DNA from: a virus
DNA length: 57,378 bases
Reading direction: 5' to 3' (one strand)
Virus record (IMG/VR): IMGVR_UViG_3300047200_000271
Location: 1-57,378 of that record
The position numbers and the translations under genes were made by a program. Below the pieces are notes generated by a model. It was not told the DNA's origin. It ran no database searches and was given only the letters and a program-made list of their open reading frames with translations. Below are positions 11,085 to 29,600 of the stretch, one piece after another (positions within the stretch are counted from its first letter, which is position 1; every line of letters begins with the position of its first letter).

Positions 11085-11417
11085 GTGAGTTCACGTAAAC
11101 CAACTCGAATGACACCATGGCTGCGGGTAGTTCTATCCGCAGTCATTTTGTCTAACAGTCAGGAAGAAGCTGCACGTAGACTACATGTAGAACTACGGCA
11201 GCTTGCTCGCGATATCCAAAAGGTGAAGTACCTAACAAAGACCAGGAGTCCTATGCTGGCAGCTATCAAGCTTGGCATCATACGGATTGATTACGATCAC
11301 ATTCCAGACTGGTTGTCAGTTGATGATGTATTTTTAGCTCCAGGCTTATCCATGAAAGTCACTGCCCGTGAAGACGGTGTGGATACATCCTGGGAGATGA
11401 ATAATCTCCCAGATTAA
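11085..11417 (+). CDS. LuxR-like helix-turn-helix protein
   Basis: This protein has 110 residues from a GTG. The segment SQEEAARRLHVELRQLARDIQKV followed by TRSPMLAAIKLGII (residues about 26-64) has the shape of a LuxR/GerE-type helix-turn-helix with its characteristic final helix. The C-terminal 40 residues are acidic. It is the last early gene, and its stop codon overlaps that of the giant late gene in a TTAA. A role in early/late switching is conceivable but unproven. A second LuxR-type gene is at 53881. Confidence 0.5.
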   Translation: MSSRKPTRMTPWLRVVLSAVILSNSQEEAARRLHVELRQLARDIQKVKYLTKTRSPMLAAIKLGIIRIDYDHIPDWLSVDDVFLAPGLSMKVTAREDGVDTSWEMNNLPD

Positions 11418-14400
11418 TCCTGCCCTCTAAACAATCCTATAAGTCCTTGTTGTTCAATCACTGACTTAGCGGATGGAGCTTCAGCACTGTTGGATTCATA
11501 GTTTTTACGCTTTCGTTCTTTAAGTGCCTTGACAGGTTTGATCTCAGTCTTAAGACCAATGAAGTTTAGACCAGTGTTTAGTCCAGAGTAAACAGCTGGG
11601 TTTGCACCATACTTATCTGCGGCATAATAGGAATCGATAAACTGTGTGACGGCGGTTGGGAAACGTTCAATGAAAGCATTACTTACACGTACGTCAGTCA
11701 TCCATGGCTGAATACCACCATTCATCTCAATCAATCTAGGTAGAACCAACTGATTGTAAACATGAGTGGCTGCTTCGTTCTGACCAAACATAGGTTCACC
11801 AATCGGTGTCTTCCCTGTTTGGAAAATACCTACTGCCATGTTCAACATTGGACTAGCCTTGTAAGACACCTCACGCCCAAGGTCCGAAGCTATCTTCTCA
11901 ATGATTGTCCCATCGGATTTCTTAGCCTTCTTAGCATCAGATGGACCTGTTTGCAGAGCAGCTTCCATTAATCGATATCCAAGCCTGTAGTGGTCAAACA
12001 AACCAGCCGGTGGGTCAATTCTGAAGTCACCAATACGAATGCGTCCAGCTTGACGCGTTACATCAGTCTCAACTTCTGTCTCAGGGTTAAAGTTCTGCCA
12101 TAGGATAGCCAAGATCATCATAAAGATCTGGCCACCGACAAGTCTGCCATACATCGTACGTCCAAGAGATGCCGCAGCTTGATCGCCCTTGTACAGATTC
12201 CATACAGGGTTATCATGCCCCATAAGATCATGTAGTAACGAGAACGAATCGCCGCTCAGTACACTGTTCACCCATGGATCAATAAGAGCACGAGACATAA
12301 CCCAGCGTGGAGCAGTAAAGAGTAGCTTAGCAATACGACCAGCAGTAGCATCACGTTGCTTGTTGGTTGAGTAAGCTACGTCACCTGTTGTTACGGCGAG
12401 GATTCGTGCACCATCTTTCAATGCACGCTTCATCTTTTCCGAGCCCTCTACATAACCCATTGCAAGGAACTGCTTGTGCCAGTTGTCAAATGCCAATAGC
12501 AGAATCTGGTCATGTAGAATTGCATTGAAGCGCTCGAACTGACCTTGACCTGGAAGGTGACGAGACAGTCGGTTCTTGATGAACCATTCGTCGTTTGTAC
12601 CCAACTCATCAATATCCATGAGTGTTGTACGGCAGTCATCAAGTGTTGCGTCTGGATTGATACGACGAAGGTTATGTAACTCTATGGACAAAGCGTCTGC
12701 AAAACGCTCATCAATCTCAAACATACCAAGTGGAAGACCTGCTTCACGAGCAAGCTCGTAGGCTGGATTCTGGCGCATTGCGTCACCAATATCATGATAG
12801 ACCTCGCGTCCAAGTTTTCGGTGTCCAATACCTCCAAACCATTCGACTCTCAGGTTCGGCGCAAATCCACGCATGGCCATCAGGAATGCCTTGAATCCAA
12901 TAGCCGGATTAGAAAGCGAGATAATACCAGCCTGGAGAGTCATAAACGCAAGGTCACTCGATAGGGTAAGACGAGTGACGTCATTGATAAAGTCAACAAT
13001 CGAAGTTAACTTGTCAGCTGTGTCAGGGACTCTTGTCTTACGTACACGAATAGGTGTTTCTGCCCTAGGTCCGGATGTTGCAGCTGGCTCAGCTTTACCT
13101 GCGTAATCAGGTTTGTAGTTGATGTCAGGCATCCTGCCCATGAATGCTACATCTTCATTCATCCATTCATCCTGTGACTTATCACGAAGGATGTAATCAA
13201 ATTCAGATGGATACGCTGTAGGCACTGACTTAGTTTCAGTCCACGTAGTCCACGGTAACTTAGCATGATTACTACGGGGAAGAATAATGTTTTGTGTTGT
13301 ATTCAATCCACCAATGCTATGCTTTGCGTTCAGTAAGACTATGCCATCACGAGTTGGGTTCTTTGCGAACATATTCTCTACAGATACGGCATCCATACCT
13401 TGACCACTTAAGTCAACTACCAATGGGTTATCAACACGAAGGTAGTAACCAAACTGGTTGTATCCAGTTTGATCAGATGGTCCACCAGACATTACAAATC
13501 CACCAGCACTACGTAGCCAGGATAATGTCTTATTTGGAGCAAAACCAACTGTTACAAGAGGTCTACCTGTGCGAGGCCTCGTAGATGCATCCTGATATGA
13601 ATCTGAATCAGCAGTGTGAATGCGAGCAGTATCAAACTTAGCCGAAGCCAGTTGTTGAGAAACAGTATCAATCAACGCTTGCAATTCATTTGGATCATCG
13701 ATTGCAGCATCTATACCTTGACGAATCTCTGCGAGGGTTGTCTCCCCACGCAGGTAGTCATCCATCAATACTTCAAGTTCAACAGCGTCTTCTGGAGTGA
13801 GTGTTCCATTGAGAGACTTGGCAAACTTGACGATTGACTTACCAGACATGTACTTTCGGATATTGGCGCGAACCGCCGGTGCAATCTCACCAATCGCCAC
13901 ATTAGGACGCAAGTCGCTGGTTGTAATAGCCTCAACTACAGGATTGTTACCAGACCATTTCTTAAAGGCCTTGGTTTCTGTGCGTGCGTAGTTTAATAAC
14001 GCTGCACCATCTGACATAGTAGTCGCAGCACGGTACAGGTTGTACACGTTAGATGGTTTTCCACGGCTGTCTCTAACAATGTCACCATCAATACGACCAG
14101 ATTTAATCATTGACTGAATGATAGGTTTAAGCTCAGTGCGTACTTCAGTTGAATTAATTGGTAAGTTAGCTTTCTTATCTGCTTCGGACAGAACAATCTT
14201 AGGAAGCTTGCCAGATAGAGCAATTTCTTCGATATGCGAGTTACGCATTATCTCTTGCTTATTATTCAACTCAGCCAACAACATAGCAGTCACCCACGAT
14301 CGTTTAGGTAACAGTCTGTGGCCTTGAGTCATGTAAGGTTTGAGGACAACTGTATCCGGGTTATATTGCTTAGCCTTGGCCGTGTAAGGCAAGAATTGAT

Positions 14401-17400
14401 CTGTACCAGCAGCCTTGAATAAAGTATCTCCAGATGACACACTCACTTTAAGCGTGCCTAAAGGATGAGTCTGCTGTGCTTTAACTCGATCAAATATGAC
14501 ACTGCCATCTTGTAGCGTTATCGGTACAGGACTAAACTTACCAGTAGCCCCCTGGTTGTGACGGAATAAGTCAACTAGCCCTTCCTTTAACTCATAAGAA
14601 ACAGCTTCACGGTAGTTCCTAATCTCATGTTCTTTATATGGATACCGTGGTACGTATTCACCATTTGCTTCTCGTGACATATAGTCCAATGACAAAGCCA
14701 ACTCTAACCGTGAGTTCATTCGTTGGAAATCACCAGGATTTGATATTGTTCCGTCAATAATCTTTCGTGCGTAATCACGTAGGTGTATCTGGACTGACCC
14801 ACCTTTAGGATTGAACATGTATTCCATGTCAATATCATTACGATAAAAACCCTGTAAACCCTTAGCCATAGCTTGCCATGTAGCAGGATTGATTCTCGAC
14901 CGTTTGTCATTACTGAGTTGCATCTTCTCAAGTAACTTGACCGCTTCATCACTGTCAACAGAATTCATAGCCAAATAAACAGCACTGTCAAATCCTGTAC
15001 CAGGATTCATCTGACCATTATCTACTGTTGATCTAGGATTGGCAACGTACTCCGCAGCTTTATCCAAGGCGTATGCTAATGGAGTGCGTCTTGATGGGTT
15101 ACCATACTCAAATAGTCTGTTGATATTAGCAAGAGTTAGAGGTTCGTATTTAAATATCTCGTCGATTACCGGTTTCATCTTAACCATGTCGGCCCAGTGT
15201 TTAAGGCCATCTTGGCCAAACCGCGCATAGATGCGACCAAGTAACATGTCATGTCCAATACTGTTAAGATTAGCAGTGCGTAACATGTCGTGTCCAGATG
15301 TAGTAACACCAAGTAAGTGCATTAACTGTCCATCATTCAGCATTGTTGAGATATTTGACAGTATCTCACTAACCGTATAAGGGTCACGCCTATCGGTGCT
15401 ACCCAATTCCATAGGATTTATCATCATGTCACGCATGGACAAATCACGATTTTGCATCATGTTAATGACGTTAGTTCTAGCTGCATCCCTTAGTGCATTT
15501 AACTGTGATGACCACTTGTATTGATTAGTTGATACCGCATTACTGAGAACACCTTGATTAATTAGTGCGGTTCTTAATCTCATACCACTAAGGCCCCTGA
15601 TGTCACTGTAACCACTAGTCCACACAAATACTTTACTAGGTATTTTGTTATAAGGAATACCAGTTAACAAGTGAAGGTTGACGTCGGTTGGGCTAAATCC
15701 AACAGGAAATAAATCGCCATTATCTATAACTTTTATACCAGTGCCATCAAACAATTCCCGTAAAGCATCGAGTTCATGTTGTTGTTGAGTCGATACCACG
15801 ACAATAGGATTGCCGTCGTATTCGTACTCAGGCTTTATCGTTTCTTTGGTGGCTATGTAGTTATTAGGTTGTGCTTGCTCATCAGGCTGTTGACCCTCTT
15901 GGTTACCTTGGTCCGTTTCACTGCTTGCGATTGAGTCACTTGTACCAGTAGACGGAACCAACGTGTCGTTAAAGTCTTCCATTAAATGCTTGACTGACTT
16001 CCAGATGTTTGCATCTGATTCACGGTAGTAAGCACCAAGGTACTTAGATAAGGTCTCAAGCATGCCTGGGTTAAACCCTTGAGTAAGCCCACCCAGGTTT
16101 GAGATATCACCGCGATCTATCAGTACAGGGTTCTGGTCACCAGCAATATGGACTTCAACTTTACCTTCAGGAGCATACGAAGTTCTATAAGCATCGTAAG
16201 CGGCCTTATCTTTTGGATCAGGCTTTGTAACGATGGCCAAGTTATCTTCGCCATCTTTGCTAACATAGACCTGCATGCCCTTGAACAGGCGAATATTTGG
16301 ATCAAATGGTGCAACCCACTGAGTCAGATTGTCTCCATTTTGGTTTTTAATGTTCTTGCCAGTAACTGTAGAAAAGACTTCATTTAAATACTTTCCAGTA
16401 CCATTCCAGAATAGATCCAAATCCCTAGCCTGAACTCGTGGATCACCACTCTCGTAGTTACCTTGAACTACAGGAGTTACCTGATTACGTAGAGATGCAA
16501 CAAACATTCCAACAAACAACTCTTCAGAATCTATAGGCATAGCATCGCTGAACACGCCAGCACTTGCACGAGTTCGTTGCATCTGTGCAAGCAACTTATC
16601 TCGATATGGTTTATCCATCCCACGAAGCAAAGCATGGGCTATCTCATGTACTCCAGTCTCTTCATCCCTAGATGCAAAAGCGGCAATGACATTGAACGAT
16701 GTGCCATCTTCACGAGCAGCTTTGAATGTTGCACCGTACCCAACGTCATCAAGCTTAGACAGGTCTGACACGTAAGCAAACGCAGCAAACCTGTCACGGT
16801 AAAACTCACGCATTAGCATCGCAACAGACTTGACTGTTTCTTCGTCTTGCCGAAGAACGCGATGCATAACGAGCTCTACAGTTCCTTCAGATGTTGTACG
16901 CTCAGTAGGACGGATATCACGAACTCTCTGACGGGCTGCCAACTGGCGCACAGCCCAAGCACGAGCGAAATGATCAACAATACCAGACCAATAGTTCGCT
17001 CCTGTTTGCGTATATCCATACTGTTCACGTAGTACCGTTTTAAGTTGAGTTCTATTGTTGACGATAGTTGCGTCAAACTTATATTGAGTACCATTGATTT
17101 CTTTAAGTACGGTTACGATCTCTCGGTTCTGAACAATGGATTCAATCTCAGATTCTTTGTAGACAGTTTCTTTCTTTACACGCTTAGGTGTTTCAGTGGA
17201 TGTACCAACATTATTTAACTGTTTAGTAAGATTTTCTATCTGAGTATTCAGTTCATCAATTTTTGTGTCATACCCAGATTCGATCATTCTCATCTGAGCA
17301 AGCAATGCGTTGATACGTGCATCGTTGTCTGTAGTGTCAGAAGACAATTGAACACTACGCCCAGCAAGTTCTTGCTGTTGTTTAATTACTTGTTCAATTA

Positions 17401-20400
17401 ATTGTTCAATCTTCTTTTCAAGCTGAGATGTAGCAAGCTTGTCGGCGTTCTGAACACCGTCAACAATACGTTGAAGAGCAGCAATATCAGCTTGGTGCTT
17501 TTTGGATTGGGATTCAAGGGCTGATTCAATAGCTTCAGCCTGACGTTTCTCTGCGTCGTTTTTAGCTTCCTTAGCCTTCTTCTTAGCCTTACGCAGTCGA
17601 TCTGTAACATCAGTCAACTGATCCTTTACAGATTTAAGGTCATCTGATGCTTGTTGAGCAGACGCTCCAATATCGGTCTGTAGTTTTTCAAGCTTTGATT
17701 TAAGGTCGGTAATTTCTGCGGAAGTATCAGTGGTTTTCTGCTTTACACGCAGCTCTTCACGCTTGATCTCGTTTGCCTGTTCTGCCAATCGTTCACGCAA
17801 GGCAAGCTCGGCTTGCCACTTATCTTTATTGGCCTGTCTCTGTTTTTCTTTATTGGCTTCAACTTCGGCTCTCTTGGCCTCCGCTTCTGCTTTACGTGCT
17901 GATAGATCACTCGCTTTTCGCTGTGCCTCCGGTGATTGCTCAACTGAAACATCTGTCGCAGACTTCCAGTTAGGATCAGAGTTCTTCATCCCAATGGAAT
18001 GATTAACCATTCCACGGACGAGGTTACGCATAAAGTCGCGGTCCGAACCCTTGACAGTAAAGAATGCCGAAGCGTCTCGCTGATCACCATAGACCGTATT
18101 GAAGACGTGCCACTCGCCACCTTGCTGACGCTTGGCAGTGTACTCTGTTACCGCCTGACCAGTTACGTTCTTCTTCTTTGCGTCGTACTGAGTCATCTCC
18201 ATGCGGACACGTACATCACCAGCATCGTCACGATTAATCTTGACGTTTAGTACTGTGTTCTTTACAGTGACTATGAATCCATCTTTAGTCCGGTTAGCAG
18301 CTCTCCCTGTAAACGATGGACGCTTAGCCATAAATGCATCATCAACATTAGATGTGTCTATTTTCTCTTTCGGGCGGAAAAATCCATCATTAATAGTTGA
18401 TTGTAAACTAGGCCTCCCCTTATATAGATCCCTGTATGTCGCTGTAGCAACGTCTATTAATTCGTTTCTTTTTTCAGAGTCTACTCCAATGCCATCTAAA
18501 TACTTGGTAAGTAACTCCTTTATAACTGGGACTTGATTATTAAAACCCAAGGATTTACTTGCAACAATATAACGATTAGTTGTGTACGCTAGTCCTAACT
18601 TGTGAGCATTGGTAACTATGTTACGAACATTGAACTCATCGTAGTAAATCTTATCGAGATCAAGGCGTTTGCCAATAGGTCCAAGTGATTCAATAGCCTT
18701 GCGGCGAGATGTACCTACAGCTGTTTCTTCTGTGTCATTACCTACATCACCAGTGCCAGTATCAGTTACACCTTCACCCTTGAGTGCAGACATAAGTGGA
18801 GCTAAACGTTCGTTAAGCCAATTTCTATTTGCACTTGCTTCAGCGACATTGTCAATCACCTTGTCAAATGACTGGTTCGTAAAGTCAACTAGGTTCTTTG
18901 CGTTACGCCGACCCCAACTTCCACCATCATAATTTGGTATGACTAAGTTCTGAAGACGAGCATCTACAGGATCTACTCCTGCGTCATAACCGGCAAGCTT
19001 ACGTACATCACCATACTTGGCATCGAGTGATTCAGAAACCTCTCGCAATGAAGGCAAGCCATAGTATTCGGACATAGCAGCTGAGCTGCCCTTGTTGAGC
19101 CAGTTTTCTCCTAATCCAAAGAATGGATACCACTGGCCAGGGTTTACTCCATCTTTAGGATTATGCCCAGTCGAACAATAAAATGGTATCTTCGCGCCAT
19201 TAATATCAACTACAGTGATAATGCGATCAGAGTAATTGAATATCTCAGACGTGTAAGTCTGCGCATTACCCATTGAGGCAAATAACTTACCATTAAGATA
19301 TGCACCAGTTGACTTGAATCCTGGAAGTTGTAACTGTGTGTGCTTACCTAGTGGACGTTTTCCATCTACAAATCCATCAAGTTGTCCATTAGTCTTGGTT
19401 AGCTTAGCAATACTGTCCACATCATCCGTGGCAATGGAATCTGGATCAATATATTCTGACGCACTAGGAGACTTGGACTTGGAAACAGCCTCTCGTACAC
19501 GCCTTAGTGTTTCATCAATGTTCTTCCGGAGGTTTTCAGCAGTGTCAGGTCGTTCGTTTTCAGCAGGAGACAACCCCTCATTGATTTGTGTTACATGACT
19601 TGCAGGTTTACGATTAAACGTAAAGCCAACCTTTGGTAGATCAGGCACAGACCTGACGTCACCAAGGTTTTGATCTAAGTATTGAGCGACCTTTGTAAAC
19701 TCAGGTGAGCCGTAATAAGACGTAATCTCTGGACCAGATGATTTATTAAACCAAGATCCTGCACCGATACCAAAGAACGGATACCACTTCCCTGGCGGGA
19801 CATCTTTCTTGCCACCAAGGCCACTTGAGCAATAGAAAGGAACTTGAATACCGTTTATGTAGACAAGTACAACTTTCCTGTCGTTGTAATTGATTATCTT
19901 ACTTTTACCAACAAACTCCTGCACAGCTTCACCACGAGCCGGAGAATATCTTGCCTCATATCGGATAGGCACAAAGTCAACATTGAGTCCTTCAATATTG
20001 GGTTTATCCCTTAAAACAGTGCGTACTTTATGTGCTGTGTCATGAAGTACAACACCGGGTGCAAGAGCTTCAGTATCCGTACCAGTATCTGTACCTGCAT
20101 CCGTACCAGTATCCGTACCAGTATCCACTACGTCCTTTGGCTTCTCACCAAGCAATGCTGTTGGACCGGTGTCAATACCTTCGTCAACAATCTCAGCGTC
20201 GATGATTTCAGGTGTTACATCTTCTATTTCACCTTCAGCAAAATCACCGTCACGAATGTCATCGGCAATACCTGAGTTATCTAAAAAATCAGATACTTGT
20301 TGTGCCAGCTTACCCTTTGTGTAAGGTGACAGTTCAATCTCGTCAACTTTTTCGTGATCAGGCTCAAGCTTAGGAGCACCTACAGTTTCTTCTTTGACAT

Positions 20401-22429
20401 CAACTGGCTCGACTGGCGTAGATTCAAACTTTTCACCAAAGTCAGGATTAGTGTATTCATCCTGCGTTGCAGACGGAGTCTCACCGAGCACAGATTCTGC
20501 CTCACGGCGAGACAATTCACCCTTGATGGATGAAGGCTGCACAGTGAACGATCCAATGCGTGGATGGTCAACCAGGCGCACTATATGACCATACTTGTTT
20601 TGGCCGACAACAATAGCCGTTTGTTCACCAAACTGGCTAGTGTTTACATCAATAACATCTCCGCGTTTATAACGTTTTGATGGACCCTCGAAATCAATTA
20701 TTGACTCAGCAGCTTTGGCAATACGACCAAGGTTTAACTCAATAGCCGCAGCTCGCTGTTCCTTGTTGCGAATACCCTTGATTGCCTCAAGGTCTGATCC
20801 AAACTGGCGACGTATTTTACCTACTACAGTAAGCTGTTCTGGAGTTAACTCAAGAACCGCTTCGTTTTCAGAACCTTGACCAAACTTCCATTGATTCTTT
20901 AGGATTTTCTCCGGTGGTATAAGGTCAGATAAGCTACGTGGAAGTTCGTTTTCTTGCACTTGACCACGAGGTATTACAGCACCAGCTTCATCAACATTGA
21001 TCTGAGATTCATGCACACGCATGTGCGTCCCATCAGGTAGTGCAACAATGTACATACCCTGACGCTTCTGGTTGACCTGTTTTACAACACGAGCTGGAAA
21101 TGCTGGGAGACTAGGATCAAGCGTAACTTCTGCATCAAACACTTGTTTGTTAAAGTTATCAAACGCCTCTGGCATAAACGGAGCTGGTTTATCATTCGGC
21201 TTTACACCATGCTCAGTCATTACGTTTGCAATACGTGTTGCAATCTTCTCGTTTCGTATTTCAGTTAGAGGAACGGTACTAATTCGCGACACACCATCAG
21301 GACCAATGTCTTTAACTACAACGCCAGCATCGCGGCTGATGCCGAGGATAGACCTGCGAACACCAGCTGCTTTGTCTGTGTACTCAATTAACGGAGTGCG
21401 CTTGAATATGAACTCAGTACTCGTAAGAGAGTCAGCTGCGTTTTTGGATCTATATCCTTCCAGCACAAAGTCATTGTCTGTATGTATCCATGCGCGACGT
21501 TTTTCAGGATCGTATACAGCGTATTCAGCACCCTTAATAATAGGCTGACCTTCAGCATTGACATCTCCGCTCAACCTACCACCTAGGTTGAACCGACGAT
21601 ACCGACTTTCTGTCGGTGTGATCGTCCCCTCTTGCTCTCGCATTTGAGTCTGTCTGCGCTCTACTTGATCAGCTTTGACCTCCGCACGTTTATTCGCAAG
21701 TTTATTGAGATTTGAGAGCATAAATTCAGGACTCTTAAGCCTGTTGTAAGGCTCAGTCATAGCCTTACCAAATTTAGTCTCACCACTAAGAAGAGCACCT
21801 ACTGCTCCATTACCAAGAATCTGCCACGCACTTAAGCCAGGTAAACCTTGACGCTTTTGTTCTTCCGATTGTTGATAACTTTCAAATGCACCTTGTGCAA
21901 ATTCAGTCGAACGGTCAGCTAGATCGTGCACGGTTTCACGCACACCTTCATTTCTTAACGCTTTACCGCCTTGCTTATTAAGGGCACTGACTGCTTTACG
22001 TACTCCTACGCCTGGAATCTTAAGTGATGGAGCAAAGAACGTCATGTCACCAGCAAGTGAACCAATACTTTGTGCTTGACTATAATTTACTGCGTTGAAC
22101 TGTTGAGCTTCACGACGTTTATTCATCGCTGCTGCACCAATAAGGTGCTCAAGAGCTCTGTCGTTAATCTCTTGGTTTATGTTAGTGCCAATGGTTCCAC
22201 CACCAGCTGCACCAAGTACAGTTCCAAGCAGAATACCTAAGCCACGGTATTTACCCTTGACTAGTTTTCCACCTAGAGCACCGCCACCCATAGCACCAAG
22301 GTCGCCACCAATGAGAGTTCCTGGCATACTAGCGATACGTTCGCCGTACGCCATTCCAGCAGCTTCACCTGCACCAACAAGAGGGCTCTCTGACTGACGA
22401 AACACACTACCTGAATCATTACCACGCAA
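11414..22429 (-). CDS. Giant polyvalent-type internal virion protein (main part)
   Basis: The open frame covers 3,671 residues, the last and largest gene of the late block. Visible parts: a Gly-rich hydrophobic N-terminus (about 30-90); a DTGTDTG linker (about 773-795); two copies of an FYCS...WYPFFG...YYG module (about 860 and 1083); a long Lys/Glu/Ala coiled coil (about 1500-1745); a zinc-peptidase motif HEIAHALLRG (about 1927); a segment resembling the ADP-ribosyltransferase fold of polyvalent proteins (GYYLRVDNPLVVDL, DGIVLLNAKH, about 2950-3060); and a C-terminal region like the large polyvalent-protein-associated domains with a membrane-like segment at about 3430. Such proteins are packaged and injected with the DNA. 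The listed start is a TTG without a clear ribosome binding site. The true N-terminus probably lies in the overlapping gene at 22273-23019 (see findings). Confidence 0.85.
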   Translation of the reverse strand: MRGNDSGSVFRQSESPLVGAGEAAGMAYGERIASMPGTLIGGDLGAMGGGALGGKLVKGKYRGLGILLGTVLGAAGGGTIGTNINQEINDRALEHLIGAAAMNKRREAQQFNAVNYSQAQSIGSLAGDMTFFAPSLKIPGVGVRKAVSALNKQGGKALRNEGVRETVHDLADRSTEFAQGAFESYQQSEEQKRQGLPGLSAWQILGNGAVGALLSGETKFGKAMTEPYNRLKSPEFMLSNLNKLANKRAEVKADQVERRQTQMREQEGTITPTESRYRRFNLGGRLSGDVNAEGQPIIKGAEYAVYDPEKRRAWIHTDNDFVLEGYRSKNAADSLTSTEFIFKRTPLIEYTDKAAGVRRSILGISRDAGVVVKDIGPDGVSRISTVPLTEIRNEKIATRIANVMTEHGVKPNDKPAPFMPEAFDNFNKQVFDAEVTLDPSLPAFPARVVKQVNQKRQGMYIVALPDGTHMRVHESQINVDEAGAVIPRGQVQENELPRSLSDLIPPEKILKNQWKFGQGSENEAVLELTPEQLTVVGKIRRQFGSDLEAIKGIRNKEQRAAAIELNLGRIAKAAESIIDFEGPSKRYKRGDVIDVNTSQFGEQTAIVVGQNKYGHIVRLVDHPRIGSFTVQPSSIKGELSRREAESVLGETPSATQDEYTNPDFGEKFESTPVEPVDVKEETVGAPKLEPDHEKVDEIELSPYTKGKLAQQVSDFLDNSGIADDIRDGDFAEGEIEDVTPEIIDAEIVDEGIDTGPTALLGEKPKDVVDTGTDTGTDAGTDTGTDTEALAPGVVLHDTAHKVRTVLRDKPNIEGLNVDFVPIRYEARYSPARGEAVQEFVGKSKIINYNDRKVVLVYINGIQVPFYCSSGLGGKKDVPPGKWYPFFGIGAGSWFNKSSGPEITSYYGSPEFTKVAQYLDQNLGDVRSVPDLPKVGFTFNRKPASHVTQINEGLSPAENERPDTAENLRKNIDETLRRVREAVSKSKSPSASEYIDPDSIATDDVDSIAKLTKTNGQLDGFVDGKRPLGKHTQLQLPGFKSTGAYLNGKLFASMGNAQTYTSEIFNYSDRIITVVDINGAKIPFYCSTGHNPKDGVNPGQWYPFFGLGENWLNKGSSAAMSEYYGLPSLREVSESLDAKYGDVRKLAGYDAGVDPVDARLQNLVIPNYDGGSWGRRNAKNLVDFTNQSFDKVIDNVAEASANRNWLNERLAPLMSALKGEGVTDTGTGDVGNDTEETAVGTSRRKAIESLGPIGKRLDLDKIYYDEFNVRNIVTNAHKLGLAYTTNRYIVASKSLGFNNQVPVIKELLTKYLDGIGVDSEKRNELIDVATATYRDLYKGRPSLQSTINDGFFRPKEKIDTSNVDDAFMAKRPSFTGRAANRTKDGFIVTVKNTVLNVKINRDDAGDVRVRMEMTQYDAKKKNVTGQAVTEYTAKRQQGGEWHVFNTVYGDQRDASAFFTVKGSDRDFMRNLVRGMVNHSIGMKNSDPNWKSATDVSVEQSPEAQRKASDLSARKAEAEAKRAEVEANKEKQRQANKDKWQAELALRERLAEQANEIKREELRVKQKTTDTSAEITDLKSKLEKLQTDIGASAQQASDDLKSVKDQLTDVTDRLRKAKKKAKEAKNDAEKRQAEAIESALESQSKKHQADIAALQRIVDGVQNADKLATSQLEKKIEQLIEQVIKQQQELAGRSVQLSSDTTDNDARINALLAQMRMIESGYDTKIDELNTQIENLTKQLNNVGTSTETPKRVKKETVYKESEIESIVQNREIVTVLKEINGTQYKFDATIVNNRTQLKTVLREQYGYTQTGANYWSGIVDHFARAWAVRQLAARQRVRDIRPTERTTSEGTVELVMHRVLRQDEETVKSVAMLMREFYRDRFAAFAYVSDLSKLDDVGYGATFKAAREDGTSFNVIAAFASRDEETGVHEIAHALLRGMDKPYRDKLLAQMQRTRASAGVFSDAMPIDSEELFVGMFVASLRNQVTPVVQGNYESGDPRVQARDLDLFWNGTGKYLNEVFSTVTGKNIKNQNGDNLTQWVAPFDPNIRLFKGMQVYVSKDGEDNLAIVTKPDPKDKAAYDAYRTSYAPEGKVEVHIAGDQNPVLIDRGDISNLGGLTQGFNPGMLETLSKYLGAYYRESDANIWKSVKHLMEDFNDTLVPSTGTSDSIASSETDQGNQEGQQPDEQAQPNNYIATKETIKPEYEYDGNPIVVVSTQQQHELDALRELFDGTGIKVIDNGDLFPVGFSPTDVNLHLLTGIPYNKIPSKVFVWTSGYSDIRGLSGMRLRTALINQGVLSNAVSTNQYKWSSQLNALRDAARTNVINMMQNRDLSMRDMMINPMELGSTDRRDPYTVSEILSNISTMLNDGQLMHLLGVTTSGHDMLRTANLNSIGHDMLLGRIYARFGQDGLKHWADMVKMKPVIDEIFKYEPLTLANINRLFEYGNPSRRTPLAYALDKAAEYVANPRSTVDNGQMNPGTGFDSAVYLAMNSVDSDEAVKLLEKMQLSNDKRSRINPATWQAMAKGLQGFYRNDIDMEYMFNPKGGSVQIHLRDYARKIIDGTISNPGDFQRMNSRLELALSLDYMSREANGEYVPRYPYKEHEIRNYREAVSYELKEGLVDLFRHNQGATGKFSPVPITLQDGSVIFDRVKAQQTHPLGTLKVSVSSGDTLFKAAGTDQFLPYTAKAKQYNPDTVVLKPYMTQGHRLLPKRSWVTAMLLAELNNKQEIMRNSHIEEIALSGKLPKIVLSEADKKANLPINSTEVRTELKPIIQSMIKSGRIDGDIVRDSRGKPSNVYNLYRAATTMSDGAALLNYARTETKAFKKWSGNNPVVEAITTSDLRPNVAIGEIAPAVRANIRKYMSGKSIVKFAKSLNGTLTPEDAVELEVLMDDYLRGETTLAEIRQGIDAAIDDPNELQALIDTVSQQLASAKFDTARIHTADSDSYQDASTRPRTGRPLVTVGFAPNKTLSWLRSAGGFVMSGGPSDQTGYNQFGYYLRVDNPLVVDLSGQGMDAVSVENMFAKNPTRDGIVLLNAKHSIGGLNTTQNIILPRSNHAKLPWTTWTETKSVPTAYPSEFDYILRDKSQDEWMNEDVAFMGRMPDINYKPDYAGKAEPAATSGPRAETPIRVRKTRVPDTADKLTSIVDFINDVTRLTLSSDLAFMTLQAGIISLSNPAIGFKAFLMAMRGFAPNLRVEWFGGIGHRKLGREVYHDIGDAMRQNPAYELAREAGLPLGMFEIDERFADALSIELHNLRRINPDATLDDCRTTLMDIDELGTNDEWFIKNRLSRHLPGQGQFERFNAILHDQILLLAFDNWHKQFLAMGYVEGSEKMKRALKDGARILAVTTGDVAYSTNKQRDATAGRIAKLLFTAPRWVMSRALIDPWVNSVLSGDSFSLLHDLMGHDNPVWNLYKGDQAAASLGRTMYGRLVGGQIFMMILAILWQNFNPETEVETDVTRQAGRIRIGDFRIDPPAGLFDHYRLGYRLMEAALQTGPSDAKKAKKSDGTIIEKIASDLGREVSYKASPMLNMAVGIFQTGKTPIGEPMFGQNEAATHVYNQLVLPRLIEMNGGIQPWMTDVRVSNAFIERFPTAVTQFIDSYYAADKYGANPAVYSGLNTGLNFIGLKTEIKPVKALKERKRKNYESNSAEAPSAKSVIEQQGLIGLFRGQD

Positions 22430-23019
22430 CCGATCATCGATTGCACCAAGTGGTGAGCAATAGGACCAGCTTGACTAAACTGGTTTGCAGCTTCAGCGTC
22501 ATTAAAAGACTTACTGATGATTGGAAGTTCTGCACCACCTACATAAGGAATATTTTCATTTAACTGACCAGACGTATCTGGACCAAAACGATAAACATCT
22601 TCAGGTGTATAACCTAGTGCCCCTAGGTACTTTTGTGTATTACTCTTATCAAGACTAGCTTCTGCTGAAAGCGCATCTTTTTTACTAGTACGGAACTGTT
22701 CGATTTGCTCAGGAGATAGATCTGGCCTGAACTCACGATCTACAAACTGCTTGCGCTTTACTGGGTCTTGAGTAAGTTCGACCGCACGATTAGCTTTAAA
22801 TGCAGCGTATTCATTCCGTTGCTTTGGTGTTATAAGTTCTTTTTCAGACAGCTTTTGAACAATGTCTGAAAACTTGTTACTGAATAACACGTCATCGTAC
22901 TGTGTGCCTTGTTGTAAAAATTTGAGAGCACCTTGCTTTGTACTAAAGTTAGGTAAGTTCTCAATTAATTCACGAGCACCAGCACTACGAGCGAATTCTT
23001 CTTTTATTCGGTCGGGCAT
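22273..23019 (-). CDS. N-terminal part of the giant protein, out of frame at its end
   Basis: This 248-residue frame starts with a hydrophilic helical protein (MPDRIKEEFARSAGAREL) and looks like normal coding sequence to about residue 190. The last 50 residues switch to a hydrophobic, Cys/Val/Leu-rich stretch that is out of phase with the good coding sequence in the giant gene's frame over the same DNA. A -1 shift or one missing base near 22440-22475 would join the two into one protein of 3,868 residues. The start has TAAAAT exactly 6 nt upstream and no ribosome binding site, so it is probably leaderless. Confidence 0.6.
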   Translation of the reverse strand: MPDRIKEEFARSAGARELIENLPNFSTKQGALKFLQQGTQYDDVLFSNKFSDIVQKLSEKELITPKQRNEYAAFKANRAVELTQDPVKRKQFVDREFRPDLSPEQIEQFRTSKKDALSAEASLDKSNTQKYLGALGYTPEDVYRFGPDTSGQLNENIPYVGGAELPIISKSFNDAEAANQFSQAGPIAHHLVQSMIGCVVMIQVVCFVSQRALLLVQVKLLEWRTANVSLVCQELSLVATLVLWVAVL

Positions 23020-23063: not shown

Positions 23064-24869
23064 TTACTTGCCTTCACCAAATATTCTATTAAACATTTGA
23101 TCTCTTGTTTCACCAGTTGGTTTTCGTTCTACTGGTTTTGGCGGCTTTGTCGGCTTTGGTGGTTGTGTCGGCTTTGGTGGTTGTGTCGGCTTTGGTGGGT
23201 TAGGCCCTCCACCCATACCTGCACTATCAGGAGTTCTTCCTCCAAACCCTCCGAAGTTATTATTTACTCTAGCCATTGTTGCGTCTGTTGGAGCTTGATA
23301 AAGACCAGCGGATCTGTCAACCTCGTAACCGTGACGTGAACCCATAGTTCCAAACATAGCAGGATTATTTTGAATAGCATGTCCAAGTGCTGCCATTAAA
23401 GGGTTGTCAGTTAAAAAACCGGTATTAGCCATGTCATTACCAATAATTCCAAGGTTTGCCCACTCCATTGGTGAACCTGTCTCAGTTACACCCCATCTAT
23501 TCATTTCTCCTACTTGAGTATTCAAACCAGCAACCATATCGTCAATTTCTTTTATTGCAGCTTGTGTATTCTTGTTACTCGGATCGTAGTTTGGGCTATT
23601 TATAATTTTTGTTTTTTCTTGTATAGCCATAGTCATAGACTTCTTTAAGTCACCAGTAGCAGTAAAGATGCTGCGAACATTCAGGTTTCTCTCGTCGCCA
23701 ACTTTACGTTCCAAGTCTGCATTACGGTACGTCATCATGTCACCGTGCCGGTTATTTAAATTCTGTTCTTTGAGTTGTGCAAACGCAAGTCTAGCCCTAC
23801 CAAGAGCTTGACTGGCCATTGCCGCAGATGCCTTTAACGGCGCAAATCGTACATCCGTTAGAGCTTTCTTAGTCCTAGCTTCCATTAAAGCTATTTCAGG
23901 TAGAAGCTTTTTCTCCGCTATCTGAATCCTACTTGTTGATGCAGCAGCAGATGCTTTCTTTGATTCTATAGCAGCTTTATCTGTTTCCTTCATGCCGTAT
24001 GTAGCACGTACAGGAACATCCTTGGGTGTTGCTTCACGCTCACGCGAAATCATTACGCTGTCAGGAATGCCAGACTTAACTGCTTTTTGAATTTGTTCAG
24101 GCGAACGGAACATGTCCTCTGGTTTCATAGACATCATGTCGCCGAAGTTTTGAGGCATGTTAGCAGTAGTCACCCCGCCGTAATACTTTGCAGCACCTTG
24201 ACCCATCATTCCCATCAAGTCTTTAGTTTGATCATTTATAGGGGCATTGGAAAACTCTAGGAAGTTACGGCTACCTTCAGGACGAGTGGCCATAGATTGA
24301 CCAACCTGTGGAGTGTCTGCGCCGTAAATCTCCTGAATAGACTGAGGATCATAAAACTGTGTAGTTGGATCATTACCGTAATCAGGATTGACTAGATTAC
24401 CAGCTCCAATTTTGCGTTCAGTAACACCTGGAATGATTGAACCAGGAGCAGCAAGTGATCTGTCAAGTTGATCTTGTGTAAGTCCCCAAGGACGATCTGG
24501 AGTAGCTCCATAAAGATTCATGATATTGCCGCGAAGTTGATGAATACCAGTGTCAAGTTCTGCGCCCGTTCTACCTTCAAGGCGTTTCATCCCACGGTCC
24601 ATCTCAAGGCCAACATCACCAAGTGTTTTCTGACGAAATTCTTCTTGTTTAAGTCTTCCAGCAGCAACGTCAGATTTACGTTTGTCCGCTCTGTCTTCTT
24701 CAAGAGAAGTTAACTTAGCCATCTCAATAGCGTTGCGCTGTCGATCAGATTTAAGTCGTGCGTTAGTAGTAATCAAGTTCTGACGTTCACGTCGGCCTTG
24801 ACTTCGTGCATTCATGTAACCTTGACCTAGACCAAGTAGAGCTCGTGTTAATCCAGAACTTACTGCCAT
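23064..24869 (-). CDS. Internal virion / ejection-type protein with PPKPT repeats
   Basis: This protein has 601 residues and is predicted to be mostly helical and hydrophilic. The N-terminus (LTRALLGLGQGYMNARSQ) is amphipathic, residues 20-110 are strongly charged, and a Pro-Lys-Pro-Thr repeat (PPKPTQPPKPTQPPKPT) precedes the C-terminal 25 residues. Position between the nozzle/fibre genes and the giant protein, and the Gln/Lys/Ala-rich helical make-up, match podovirus internal core or ejection proteins. No enzyme motif was found. AGGTGA is a good ribosome binding site. Confidence 0.55.
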   Translation of the reverse strand: MAVSSGLTRALLGLGQGYMNARSQGRRERQNLITTNARLKSDRQRNAIEMAKLTSLEEDRADKRKSDVAAGRLKQEEFRQKTLGDVGLEMDRGMKRLEGRTGAELDTGIHQLRGNIMNLYGATPDRPWGLTQDQLDRSLAAPGSIIPGVTERKIGAGNLVNPDYGNDPTTQFYDPQSIQEIYGADTPQVGQSMATRPEGSRNFLEFSNAPINDQTKDLMGMMGQGAAKYYGGVTTANMPQNFGDMMSMKPEDMFRSPEQIQKAVKSGIPDSVMISREREATPKDVPVRATYGMKETDKAAIESKKASAAASTSRIQIAEKKLLPEIALMEARTKKALTDVRFAPLKASAAMASQALGRARLAFAQLKEQNLNNRHGDMMTYRNADLERKVGDERNLNVRSIFTATGDLKKSMTMAIQEKTKIINSPNYDPSNKNTQAAIKEIDDMVAGLNTQVGEMNRWGVTETGSPMEWANLGIIGNDMANTGFLTDNPLMAALGHAIQNNPAMFGTMGSRHGYEVDRSAGLYQAPTDATMARVNNNFGGFGGRTPDSAGMGGGPNPPKPTQPPKPTQPPKPTKPPKPVERKPTGETRDQMFNRIFGEGK

Positions 24870-24878
24870 TTATTTCAC

Positions 24879-26243
24879 CTAAAATCCAAATCGACCAGGC
24901 GTGTTATTGATTCCATAATATAGATCAGGAGTGAATTGTGATTGATAACCGTAATCATCAGGTTGACTTGCTAAATTCATGTTACCCATACGTGGACCAG
25001 ACCTTTTGAAAGTTGGAATGTCAACAGTAGGGTTGCCGCCTTGAAAATCAAACTGTCGATTACCTACACCGGGCATCTGTCCAGGCATTTGTGTCTGTGG
25101 GGCCATCCCACCAGGAGTTCCACCAGCTCGTTGTGCTACAAGATCTCTAACATTCATACCACCATAAGGCATAGACTGAGCCTCATCGCCCATGCCGTAC
25201 ATTTTCATCAATCGATCCATCTGCGATTGATTAGCTTGATCACCTAGGTAAGACATTCCAAGTTGTGCTATGCCACCCATAGCAGCTCCCTCACGATCTC
25301 TGTTGGCTTGAGACAATGCGTCAGCTCTGGCTTTTTCTTGAGCGTTAAGGTTGTACATGTTCTGATCAAGCTGGAACATATTTTGTCTACCTTGATTAAA
25401 CAACCCTTGACCACGATTAATCTGATTGCCAATCATGCCAGACATCTGATTAATATAGCCTGGTTGTTGGTTCATGTTATTCATGGCGGCGTTATAGCCA
25501 CCTTGCGCCTGAGCTCCAATAGCAGCTTGATTAATTCCGCCAAAACCTGATAATGCTTGACCGCCACCAATCATTCCACTAGTGGCTCGCATTCTAGCTT
25601 CGGCAGCACGCCGTGCCGATTCAGTGTTAGCTGCCGCACCAGCCATCTGCCTTGTGTTGTATTCAGTAGACAATCCACGCTCAGACAGTTCTCTGAGTTT
25701 TCCAATTTGATCTTCAAGCATTGGATTGTACTTATCAAGCATGGACCTACCAGTGCCCATGTCTTCTCCGTACGATCCACGCATTGATTGCATGTTCCCT
25801 TTAGCTTGACCCATTTCAATCTCTTGTTGTGAAGGGCCACTTTTTCGGCCAATACCAAGAGACTTACCAAGTGAACTTAATCCACCAAGGGCAGCTGGTA
25901 AAAGAGCACCAATCATTTGAGCTTGGCCAACACCTGGGATAGCCATCCCAAGTGCTTTCATGCCAGCACCTCCAAGGCCTTGTCTTAGAGCATATTGACC
26001 AAGGGAGGCCATTGGGCCAGCTTTAGACCCAAATAGCATGCCCGGCAATGCGCCCATACCATAGTCTCGAAGACCACCCATCAATCCAGCCGCTGCTCCT
26101 TGTGAACCATTTTGTGCAGCGTTCTGAGTTGGAAATCGAGGGTCTGGATTTTGACCAGGCGCATTAAGTTTAAATTGGTTAGGCTTTGTCTTAAAGTACG
26201 CTCCACTACCACCGCCATAAGATCCTGGTCCATTTGTACTCAT
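24879..26243 (-). CDS. Gly/Met/Gln-rich internal virion protein
   Basis: This protein has 454 residues from the ATG at 26243, which overlaps the previous stop (TAATG) and follows AAGGTAG. A GTG/ATG further up is in frame but less likely. It contains a Gly/Ala/Leu-rich hydrophobic stretch (about residues 45-125, LPGMLFGSKAGP...LLPAALGGLSSLG), then Gln/Asn/Met-rich helical sequence. This composition suits a membrane-interacting ejection protein. The neighbouring 23064 and giant genes would form the inner-capsid set. The role is an inference from position and composition. Confidence 0.5.
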   Translation of the reverse strand: MSTNGPGSYGGGSGAYFKTKPNQFKLNAPGQNPDPRFPTQNAAQNGSQGAAAGLMGGLRDYGMGALPGMLFGSKAGPMASLGQYALRQGLGGAGMKALGMAIPGVGQAQMIGALLPAALGGLSSLGKSLGIGRKSGPSQQEIEMGQAKGNMQSMRGSYGEDMGTGRSMLDKYNPMLEDQIGKLRELSERGLSTEYNTRQMAGAAANTESARRAAEARMRATSGMIGGGQALSGFGGINQAAIGAQAQGGYNAAMNNMNQQPGYINQMSGMIGNQINRGQGLFNQGRQNMFQLDQNMYNLNAQEKARADALSQANRDREGAAMGGIAQLGMSYLGDQANQSQMDRLMKMYGMGDEAQSMPYGGMNVRDLVAQRAGGTPGGMAPQTQMPGQMPGVGNRQFDFQGGNPTVDIPTFKRSGPRMGNMNLASQPDDYGYQSQFTPDLYYGINNTPGRFGF

Positions 26244-26686
26244 TACGCTACCTTCACCCATCCATTAAAAGTGCTAAACTTGATACCTATAAACATTGCA
26301 GCTTGATACTGCGATGAAAGATTAGTAAACGCAGCCAGCTTGTAAACTGTTTCACCACTAGCCGCATTGATAGTGACAGTGTTAGCTGAAGAATCTGTTT
26401 TCATAACTGCAACTAGTTTACCAACACCTGATCCACCAGTAGGTAACGTAATAACCACAGCTGCCGCAGACGCATCAGCCATGATTAGTAACGGAGAATC
26501 AACAAATGTTTGAGATGCTGTTATGACTTTTGTAATCATGTTGACTGGAGCGTAAGGCAACAACGGTGTGCCAAAAATGGTTGTCTGTTCAATATCTACA
26601 ACAGTTACTCCATTAAGTGAGCCTGTACTAGATGAACTACTACTACTTGGTGATGAGTCATCAGGGTAGATGATATCCATTGACAT
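26243..26686 (-). CDS. Small beta-rich virion appendage protein
   Basis: This 147-residue protein opens with a Ser-rich linker (SSPSSSSSSSTGS), followed by a beta-rich domain with ITLPTGGSGVGKLVAVMKTDSSANTVTINAASGETVY (outlined, about residues 78-115). That pattern is common in phage tail-fibre and decoration domains, where the VKKTDSSANTVTI motif recurs. It is coupled to both neighbours by TAATG-type overlaps. It is probably an appendage or an accessory of the nozzle-like protein encoded upstream. Confidence 0.55.
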   Translation of the reverse strand: MSMDIIYPDDSSPSSSSSSSTGSLNGVTVVDIEQTTIFGTPLLPYAPVNMITKVITASQTFVDSPLLIMADASAAAVVITLPTGGSGVGKLVAVMKTDSSANTVTINAASGETVYKLAAFTNLSSQYQAAMFIGIKFSTFNGWVKVA

Positions 26687-29600
26687 TAGAGTGACCTCGC
26701 AATACGTGCGTCAGCACAGTGTATATGGGAAGAATAAATTCGATTAGGTGTATTTGACCAACCGTACAGGTTTAACTGCATAACAGTTGCTAGAGTAGAT
26801 CTGTTTACACTTCTAATACCAAAGGTACGGTTGAAGTTAATTGGTATAAACCAAGTTCCTGTTCCGTGTTTATTTGTACTTGTTTCATCTTGAATAGCCC
26901 AGTTAAAAGCAAACCCGTGAGCAGCTGCAATTCCAGTGCCAGTTACTGATGATGATATTGCTGAACCATCTAAGTTCTTCACTGTAAATGATGATCCAGT
27001 AGCAGATGAAATTAAGTAGTAAGTATTCACCACTACATTAGTTACAATATTGACACTAAGTAGAACTAAGTCATTTGCATTGAATGTATTTGTTGCTGTG
27101 ATAACAGGTCCTACATATGATGTTGATCCGGTTAATCCAGATATTCCAGCACCAGTAAACATATGGCAGTCAAGTTGCGAGACGCGGTTTTGATTGTAAT
27201 ATGCAATACCTTCCGAATACGTTTGCCCGTATTGCCTGGTAGTCAAGGACCAGTAAATAGGGTTGGTCGTAGTTGTTGTCTGCATGTCTACATTGCCAGA
27301 TAATTTGTATATCTGACCATTAGTTCCTAGTGCATAAAAGTCAGCTTGGTCATTTCCAAAACTCATTGACACGCCACCAGTAAACCCTTGGAATGAAGTT
27401 GGAGCTGTACCGTACGTTGACGTAGTAGGTATAGTACGCCATCGTGTCCAACCATTAGTACGTGTGTCATACACATAGACATAAGTATTAACTGAGTCAC
27501 CAACGCCAGGGGCAAAGACAAACAGTCGAGCATTATGCACAGCGTAGCTTATACCCCTGTAGGCAGACGCTGTTAAATCAGGAGCACCAGTTGCTTTATC
27601 AAGAGACAACATCTTCCTAAGTTCTATACTCCTAGGAACAATGTTTCCATTAGTAAATTCAACTACACCTATTGGACTTTGCCACATCAGTTGGCCAAAC
27701 ACAGATAATGCAGCTCTAGGTGCAACGCACCCTGTAGATGCTTCTGTAATCATTGACTGAATTGTAAACGTATTTGGATCCCAACCAAGTAAAGGGTAAA
27801 CACTACGCTCTCTAACAACCAGCATTGCAGCCGATGAACTGTTGTTAAAGAACATCTGGTCACCAGAATATGAAAGTAAAGTTACGATTTTTTCATTGTC
27901 TGATTTAGAAGATAGCGTAAAACTAGTTCCTTTAGAATCATGTGATGGGTCAGTCGCATCAGGAACTAGGGTTGTATATAGAGAATATTCATTCCCATAG
28001 TTTAGTACCCAGGAGCCATAAACAGTGTTTCCTTTAGACACCCATAGACGTTTTTGATGAATAGCAAGAGACGTGCAACCATTCGGAATTTGATCTCTAC
28101 CCGCTTCAAAGAATTGACCTTGGTCGTATGGACCAGCTTCATAAAATAGATCACCATCTGGCACGTTATCAAAAAACGTAATCTCATTCCAAGTACCAGA
28201 CGTAGTTACAGATGTAGCTGTTGAAGTCCAGTTAGTACCACTACTAGATGCACTAATTGGAACAACAGCAATGAGTCTAAATCGTCCATCAGGGAATACG
28301 CCATTAGCTCTACGGTAAACAAGTACGTGACTGTACTTATATGTAGATGCTGATGCGTAAGTTGGATTATGCCTAAGCCATACCGCAGTAGTACCTGTAA
28401 ATGCTGTTACGTTTTTGATTGCAAAAGACAACGTGGCTGGTACATTTGCAGTCAAAACAACCGTTCGTCCAGCAGTTCCAGTTGAATCGGTGTATGTAAG
28501 AGTTCCAGTAGAAGTAGATATTACAGATAATTGATTAGCAGCTGGAATTGTGTCTGTAACAAATTCACTAGGTGATGCCGATATTACAAGTGGATATGTA
28601 TCCCATTGAAGATCGGATGCAGGGTCAACCTGTGGGTTGATAACAACAGACGCCTTACTGTACGCTGCTGTTGTGTGAATAGAGTTACTAGCGTTAGATG
28701 GAAGCGTCTCAAGACCTGTCTGGTATGTAGTTCCTTCGTGATAAGTTGGAGGACGCAAGTTTGTCTGATCACTGCTATACCACCGGGTAAATGCATATTC
28801 GTAATCGGTTTCAGGAGTCAAGTTACCGTTTGATACAAGTTCGCCTACTGAGAATAATATGGAGTTATTAATTACGTCAGAATACTCAGTCTCACACCGT
28901 AGATACATATATTGAATATTGTTACGTTTAACCTGAGAGATTCCATATATTTTCCACGTCATATATCCCTTATCTGGATCATAAACTCCATAGCCAGTCC
29001 ACTCAGGAGCAGTGGCTCCAGTGTTTAAAAGCCCAAGGCTAAGGTAAGGAATATTAGTTTTTATTGCAGTCGGAAAATCCATTCGTAAACTGATTGTGTC
29101 TTCTTTTGAAAAGTCTACTTTATTCAAATTACTGAATCTAAGACTAGTGCCTTTAATGTAACCAGCAGCTAGTGGTGACACAGATGTGTTGACTTGTTTT
29201 GCTCTAATACTAACTAGGGATTGCCCGTCGAGAGCATTCTGTAAATCTGGAACGACGTGATCAACAATACTGTAAAAACAAATATTGTCAGCAAAAATAC
29301 CTTGATCTGAACCAGTAGTTTGAGCTGGGTTACCTACAGCTAATGAAATAGAAACTTTACCTATTGAACTTGTCCAAGCGCGAAAATCAACAACTACACT
29401 AACAGCCTTCCAGTCATTAGTCGATGTTGCTACAACTGGTGAAATATTCTGTGTAAATACAGCTCCTGTAATAGCTGTACCTGAACTATCCTTTCCAGTA
29501 ACAGTAATACGTACTGACTGATTACGTGGTGCAGTCATACTGTCGTTGTTAAACATCACGCACTTGAATACAAATAAAGCTGCCTTCTTAGTCTCTCCGT

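What the first reader, a model, noticed from the sequence alone, without database searches (positions are those of the whole stretch)
11414..22429. A giant protein combines a zinc-peptidase motif, an ADP-ribosyltransferase-like segment and a duplicated FYCS/WYPFFG module
Seen: HEIAHALLRG (nt about 16620-16650), an ART-like GYYLRVDNPLVVDL...DGIVLL segment (about 13255-13570), a 240-residue coiled coil and two copies of an unassigned module (about 19690-19900 and 19020-19200) with shared VPFYCS/IPFYCS, KWYPFFG/QWYPFFG and a YYG segment. Knowledge: polyvalent phage proteins string effector domains together for injection. Inference: this one delivers a peptidase and maybe an ART into the host; the duplicated module is possibly new.
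Basis: partly seen in the sequence, partly recalled or inferred. Interest (0 to 1): 0.75.

Follow-up and report, generated by a model that had tools for sequence, protein, structure and literature searches.

The report
Giant phage protein with new domain
An uncultured virus of bacteria makes one enormous particle-type protein that strings together a predicted zinc protease, a worn-out toxin-like fold and two copies of a domain with no known fold, which turns up almost only in viral proteins of the sort that travel into the host with the viral DNA and so may be a new tool for taking over bacteria.

Summary
The ORF (11414-22429, minus, 3671 aa) and the reported motifs are real; its N-terminal ~195 residues lie in the overlapping ORF 22273-23019. 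A dozen homologues (2845-4841 aa) sit in uncultured phages with the same terminase family. HExxH plus a downstream Glu is invariant in 13 aligned homologues: a zincin-type peptidase of the polyvalent-protein kind. The ART segment matches 58 ART-PolyVal domains by profile (93%; controls at most 7%), but the catalytic His is missing throughout, so it is probably inactive. The FYCS/WYPFFG module is the real find: a ~180-residue domain, predicted at pLDDT 96, without match in PDB or Pfam, in more than 100 viral contigs but one of 84,980 prokaryote genomes. It occurs in three virion-linked settings: giant proteins with LPD39, ART-PolyVal or zincin domains; virion protein gp067 of crassvirus phi14:2 (MS/MS); and solo proteins with T4-like capsid-targeting leaders in T4-type phages. 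Its Cys is not conserved. Most likely it is a delivered effector or counter-defence domain; a packaging or anchoring role is the main rival.

The parts
11414..22429 (-). giant ORF, 3671 aa from a TTG
   Evidence: homologues of 2845-4841 aa
22273..23019 (-). overlapping ORF whose first ~195 residues are the N-terminus of the same protein; frame break near nt 22430
   Evidence: 35% identity to residues 11-197 of L127's giant protein, E 7e-35
22169..22324 (-). glycine-zipper-like, membrane-type segment (residues 36-87)
   Evidence: weak profile matches only: PF05433, YiaD_Gzip; sequence
20060..20119 (-). DTGTD-rich linker before the FYCS cassette (residues 771-790)
   Evidence: sequence; the break point against L126 and L127 homologues lies here
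19475..20008 (-). FYCS domain copy 1 (residues 808-985; motif core 846-933 = nt 19631-19894)
   Evidence: profile E 5e-41; AlphaFold2 pLDDT 96.1
18785..19360 (-). FYCS domain copy 2 (residues 1024-1215; motif core 1064-1150 = nt 18980-19240)
   Evidence: profile E 7.5e-39; 49% to copy 1
18722..18769 (-). TDTGT-rich linker after the FYCS pair (residues 1221-1236)
   Evidence: sequence
17096..17959 (-). coiled coil (residues ~1491-1778)
   Evidence: SMC/PspA-type profile matches
16334..16873 (-). zincin-like peptidase region (residues 1853-2032)
   Evidence: alignment A2 of 13 homologues; profile E 8e-63
16634..16648 (-). HEIAH motif
   Evidence: H, E, H invariant in 13 of 13
16520..16522 (-). 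predicted third zinc ligand, Glu 1970
   Evidence: invariant column
16079..16318 (-). SH3/Tudor-like barrel (residues 2038-2117)
   Evidence: pLDDT 72-89 locally; Foldseek probability ~1 but E 0.07 to PWWP/Tudor domains
13244..13657 (-). degenerate ART-PolyVal-like domain (residues 2925-3062)
   Evidence: hhalign 93.4%, P 2.6e-7 against 58 ART-PolyVal sequences; catalytic His absent
11417..13117 (-). conserved C-terminal domain (residues 3105-3671), unassigned
   Evidence: in all homologues that reach the C-terminus, 22-56% identity

Best explanation
The ORF encodes a giant polyvalent protein that is most likely packaged in the virion and ejected into the host with the DNA. A fixed frame (N-terminal region, zincin peptidase, pseudo-ART, C-terminal domain) carries exchangeable cassettes. 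The zincin most likely cuts the chain, in the head or after entry, to free its parts. The ART-like domain is probably a relic or binding module without transferase activity. The FYCS cassette is a phage-borne cargo module that most likely acts on a host target early in infection (host takeover or counter-defence). Shown: the domain map, conservation of the zinc signature, the missing His, the confident fold prediction without a solved counterpart, and the recurrence of FYCS in virion-linked contexts. Inferred: injection of this protein, self-cleavage, and the activity of FYCS.
For: Zinc signature invariant in 13 divergent homologues. ART relation by profile with controls, His missing. FYCS: pLDDT 96; no PDB fold; fold matches only in phage giant proteins; 101 viral contigs; one prokaryote genome hit, within a frame that also has LPD39 and ART-PolyVal; LPD39 in other FYCS giants; MS/MS-annotated virion protein phi14:2 gp067 carries it; solo FYCS proteins have L/I-x-E capsid-targeting-like leaders, and three of their contigs have gp23 and gp21-type genes (PMC9026906). 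The FYCS pair is a clean, optional insertion in the family.
Against: No proteomics for this phage group, and no biochemical activity is known for FYCS. The peptidase fold was not confirmed (pLDDT 40-65). Two of the three protease matches are below Pfam's cut-off. The ~120-kb contigs with solo FYCS (L171, L173, L182) show neither such a leader nor gp23/gp21 matches. Optional cassettes can also be structural.
Confidence: 0.6

Rival explanations
1. FYCS is a virion-structural domain, for example one that docks proteins to the portal, the core or DNA inside the head, and has no role in the host. The giant protein is then mainly an ejection-channel or packing protein.
For: phi14:2 gp067 and phi17:2 gp039 are virion structural proteins; the phiCrAss001 cargo protein gp45 has a portal-bound domain (PMC10172136), so cargo proteins do carry docking parts.
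Against: The domain is optional within the family, and solo forms carry a separate targeting-like leader, which would be redundant. It occurs across phages with unrelated terminases, whose head parts would differ.
Confidence: 0.3
2. FYCS is a cysteine enzyme of the E2 (ubiquitin-conjugating-like) kind, with the Cys of FYCS as catalyst.
For: Weak Pfam E2-ntca match over copy 2 (E 0.01-0.08).
Against: The Cys is L, Q, I, R or K in most relatives; no E2-like fold match in PDB; copy 1 does not hit.
Confidence: 0.02
3. The ART-like domain is an active ADP-ribosyltransferase with an unusual active site and, together with the peptidase, modifies host proteins.
For: ART-PolyVal relation; the strand-5 Asp is kept in all aligned members.
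Against: The His is replaced by Gly, Ala, Ser or Val in nine of nine aligned members; no conserved Tyr or Glu in the family.
Confidence: 0.08

Closest known systems
Phage polyvalent proteins (Iyer et al. 2017, PMC5512222)
   Same: One very large chain with a zincin peptidase, an ART-related domain and further modules, in the structural gene block of a phage; FYCS-bearing relatives carry PF18858 (LPD39) and PF18760 (ART-PolyVal).
   Different: No domain of this chain reaches a Pfam cut-off; the ART is degenerate; the C-terminal domain and FYCS match no described domain here.
Crassvirus cargo proteins (phi14:2 gp067; phiCrAss001 gp45-gp50, PMC10172136)
   Same: Giant virion proteins encoded beside the structural genes; gp067 contains a FYCS domain.
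   Different: No RNA polymerase signature was recognised here; apart from FYCS no similarity to crassvirus proteins was detected.
phrog_32390
   Same: A family as long as phi17:2 gp039, which contains a FYCS domain near positions 1704-1784.
   Different: There the domain is neither delimited nor given a function.
T4 internal proteins and Alt (PMC9026906)
   Same: Solo FYCS proteins have a short leader ending in L/I-x-E, in contigs with T4-type capsid and protease genes.
   Different: No sequence similarity to IPI-IPIII or Alt was tested or seen; packaging is inferred.

Membership tests
Phage polyvalent protein | several disparate domains in one large chain | tested here: met
   domain map
Phage polyvalent protein | zincin-type peptidase signature (HExxH and a downstream Glu) | tested here: met
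   13 of 13 homologues
Phage polyvalent protein | present in the head and injected | not testable with these tools
   no proteomics of these uncultured phages
Zincin MPTase | zincin fold | tested here: inconclusive
   order of helices and strands fits, but pLDDT 40-65 and no such match in PDB search
ART-PolyVal (H-Y-D) | profile similarity to the family | tested here: met
   93.4%, P 2.6e-7; five control pairs 0.1-7%; no Pfam hit by single sequences
ART-PolyVal (H-Y-D) | catalytic His in strand 1 | tested here: not met
   Gly, Ala, Ser or Val in nine of nine aligned members
ART-PolyVal (H-Y-D) | Asp in strand 5 | tested here: met
   invariant
ART-PolyVal (H-Y-D) | Tyr in strand 2 | tested here: inconclusive
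   no conserved Tyr in the family, but the alignment is loose there
Prokaryotic E2 (E2-ntca), for FYCS | conserved catalytic Cys | tested here: not met
T4 CTS-tagged internal protein, for solo FYCS proteins | short leader ending in L/I-x-E | tested here: met
   L158-L169 and L228; not in L171, L173, L182
T4 CTS-tagged internal protein, for solo FYCS proteins | T4-type capsid and prohead protease in the same phage | tested here: met
   L163, L169, L221; two protease matches below the Pfam cut-off; other contigs are fragments or negative
T4 CTS-tagged internal protein, for solo FYCS proteins | packaged, cut and ejected | not testable with these tools
   needs virion proteomics

The most novel reading that the evidence does not exclude
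FYCS is a phage-specific protein fold that serves as a general injected effector, carried by podovirus-like phages, crassviruses and T4-type phages alike, with a host target (for example a defence system) not yet known.
Probability: 0.4. Interest if true: 0.8.

Novelty: new variant of a known kind. Interest (0 to 1): 0.62.

Why it matters
Polyvalent and internal proteins are what phages appear to send in first. A domain that recurs in three unrelated delivery contexts, has a confident predicted fold without a solved counterpart and is nearly absent from cellular genomes is a clear candidate for a new way of overcoming the host. The solo ~180-aa versions make it directly testable, and phi14:2 offers a cultured phage in which it is already annotated as part of the particle.

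Tried and rejected
Pfam, PHROGs and NCBIfam on the whole protein and its pieces gave no domain above cut-off; PDB sequence profiles gave none. An E2-type cysteine enzyme was rejected because the Cys varies. LPD38 for the C-terminal domain: no match in 13 related records, but the search rang nowhere, so it is uninformative. A 1200-aa fold of the peptidase-to-ART stretch was mostly poor (pLDDT 51), and its PDB search showed only an SH3-like barrel. A first hhalign with only 3 ART sequences was too thin (4.8%); with 58 it became clear. Programmed frameshifting at nt ~22430 is unlikely because relatives have one continuous frame; error versus private mutation is undecided. Searches with the whole giant protein in viral contigs and in cultured phages found nothing. 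Searches failed on frame, length or format; one search was a malformed report.

Full report
OBSERVATION. The minus-strand ORF at 11414-22429 is open for 3671 codons. The two FYCS modules are 49% identical over 86 residues (E 4e-28). The coiled coil is picked up by SMC-type profiles. The window is a 57,378-base IMG/VR virus record. It has terminase, portal and major head genes, and its portal is distantly related to that of Microbacterium phage Shocker (26%). In Shocker, too, a giant gene of unknown function (1743 aa) stands at the end of the structural block, just before the endolysin genes.

FAMILY. The terminase has 263 relatives in viral contigs. Searching the records behind 25 of them, and later the conserved C-terminus, gave a family of giant proteins of 2845-4841 aa, with one longer member split over the ends of its contig. 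Complete members share, in order, a zincin region, the ART-like region (not recognised in the distant L137) and ~570 C-terminal residues. Homologues start ~200 residues earlier than the window ORF; those residues are found in the overlapping ORF 22273-23019 (35% identity to L127's protein, E 7e-35). The window copy is therefore split by a frame break near nt 22430. The relatives compared do not show it, so an error or a private mutation is likelier than programmed frameshifting.

PEPTIDASE. Across 13 homologues, at 14-37% identity to the window, the only invariant residues are H, E and H of HExxH and a Glu 42 residues after the first His in the window. This is the zincin pattern described for polyvalent-protein MPTases (PMC5512222). 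No Pfam or PDB sequence match was found, and the predicted fold of that stretch was too uncertain to confirm it (pLDDT 40-65). The assignment thus rests on conservation, not on structure. Iyer et al. propose that such domains cut the polyvalent chain into working parts; I take that as most likely here.

ART-LIKE DOMAIN. The segment is conserved in the family. I collected true ART-PolyVal domains through PF18760 hits inside FYCS-bearing giant proteins and a collection scan, and compared profiles: 16 family segments against 58 ART-PolyVal sequences gave 93.4% (P 2.6e-7) over 52 columns from the NP motif to the DG motif; five control pairs gave 0.1-7%. The strand-5 Asp is kept. The His of YHGT is replaced by Gly, Ala, Ser or Val in all nine aligned members. 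By the H-Y-D rule of that family the domain should be inactive.

FYCS DOMAIN. It is absent from the closest homologues: window residues 788-1397 correspond to ~20 residues in L126's protein, and 792-1357 to ~7 in L127's. In the window the cassette is flanked by TDTGT-rich linkers. A more distant member (L142/L183; terminase 70%) has the pair at the same place, and each copy is closest to its counterpart there, so the duplication is older than that split and the cassette was lost or exchanged elsewhere. A profile-derived scan found the domain in 101 viral contigs. Two pattern-based scans of 84,980 prokaryote genomes gave a single hit, in a Stenotrophomonas contig, in a 3480-aa frame that also has LPD39 and ART-PolyVal. 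Plasmids: none. These scans need a conserved peptide, so distant relatives could be missed.

CONTEXTS OF FYCS. (a) Giant proteins with LPD39, or with ART-PolyVal plus HExxH in the same frame (L203). (b) Cellulophaga crassvirus phi14:2 gp067, residues 1357-1531 (E 9e-16), annotated as a virion protein from MS/MS and encoded beside the virion RNA polymerase; BFVD fold matches agree. (c) Solo proteins of ~180 aa, most with a leader of the type MKHLKTY(K/Q)(I/L)FE-S. Three large contigs with solo FYCS (L163, L169, L221) have the T4 major capsid protein gp23 and a gp21-type prohead protease, two of the protease matches being below Pfam's cut-off. T4 internal proteins use a short N-terminal leader cut at L/I-x-E (PMC9026906, PMC5694885). 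Nearly the same leader also stands on an unrelated protein in L163. Three ~120-kb contigs with solo FYCS (L171, L173, L182) have neither the leader nor these T4 genes, so this is not universal.

FOLD. With 37 diverse sequences AlphaFold2 gives pLDDT 96.1 and pTM 0.91 for window residues 808-985: a run of beta strands followed by helices. Foldseek finds nothing significant in PDB (best E 0.41), and in BFVD the top matches are phage giant proteins. Invariant residues of the modelled segment are R44, F58, Y59, S61, G63, K67, G73, W75, Y76, P77, F79, G80, W86, K89, Y99, L111, G116 and N143. The FYCS Cys is not among them, which argues against a cysteine enzyme and against the weak E2 match.

MECHANISM. 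The best reading is that the protein is packaged, ejected with the DNA and cut by its own zincin, and that the FYCS cassette acts in the host. Virion linkage and near-restriction to phages are supported for FYCS proteins elsewhere; injection of this one, self-cleavage and the FYCS target are inferred. The chief rival is that FYCS anchors proteins inside the head. Its optional presence in the family and its pairing with a separate targeting-like leader in T4-type phages argue against that but do not exclude it.

NOVELTY. The giant protein is a new, divergent member of the polyvalent kind; the FYCS domain is, as far as the libraries held here show, an undelimited phage domain (hidden inside phrog_32390) with a probable new fold. 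Overall: a new variant of a known kind.

Noticed in passing
window 22273-22460 (-): Frame break splitting the N-terminus of the giant protein from the rest; homologues have one continuous frame.
   Followed up: partly
window 16079-16318 (-): Confidently folded SH3/Tudor-like barrel just after the peptidase (Foldseek probability ~1 but E 0.07).
   Followed up: partly
window 11417-13117 (-): The most conserved part of the family is a C-terminal ~570-residue domain without any database match.
   Followed up: partly
L163:90-650 and L163:623-1177: Two unrelated proteins with nearly identical leaders MK(H/Y)LKTY(K/Q)(I/L)FES lie side by side, as expected of a shared capsid-targeting leader.
   Followed up: partly
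L260:40997-45262: phi14:2 gp065, an RNA-polymerase-associated virion protein, has an HEIMH motif of its own.
   Followed up: no
L263:2874-10262: The only prokaryote-genome hit for FYCS: a Stenotrophomonas contig with a polyvalent giant protein (LPD39, ART-PolyVal), probably phage-derived.
   Followed up: partly
window 23064-33479 (-): Five further genes upstream of the giant gene (601, 460, 147, 1426 and 837 aa) have no Pfam match above cut-off; only the 147-aa one has a PHROG match (phrog_8859, unknown function).
   Followed up: no
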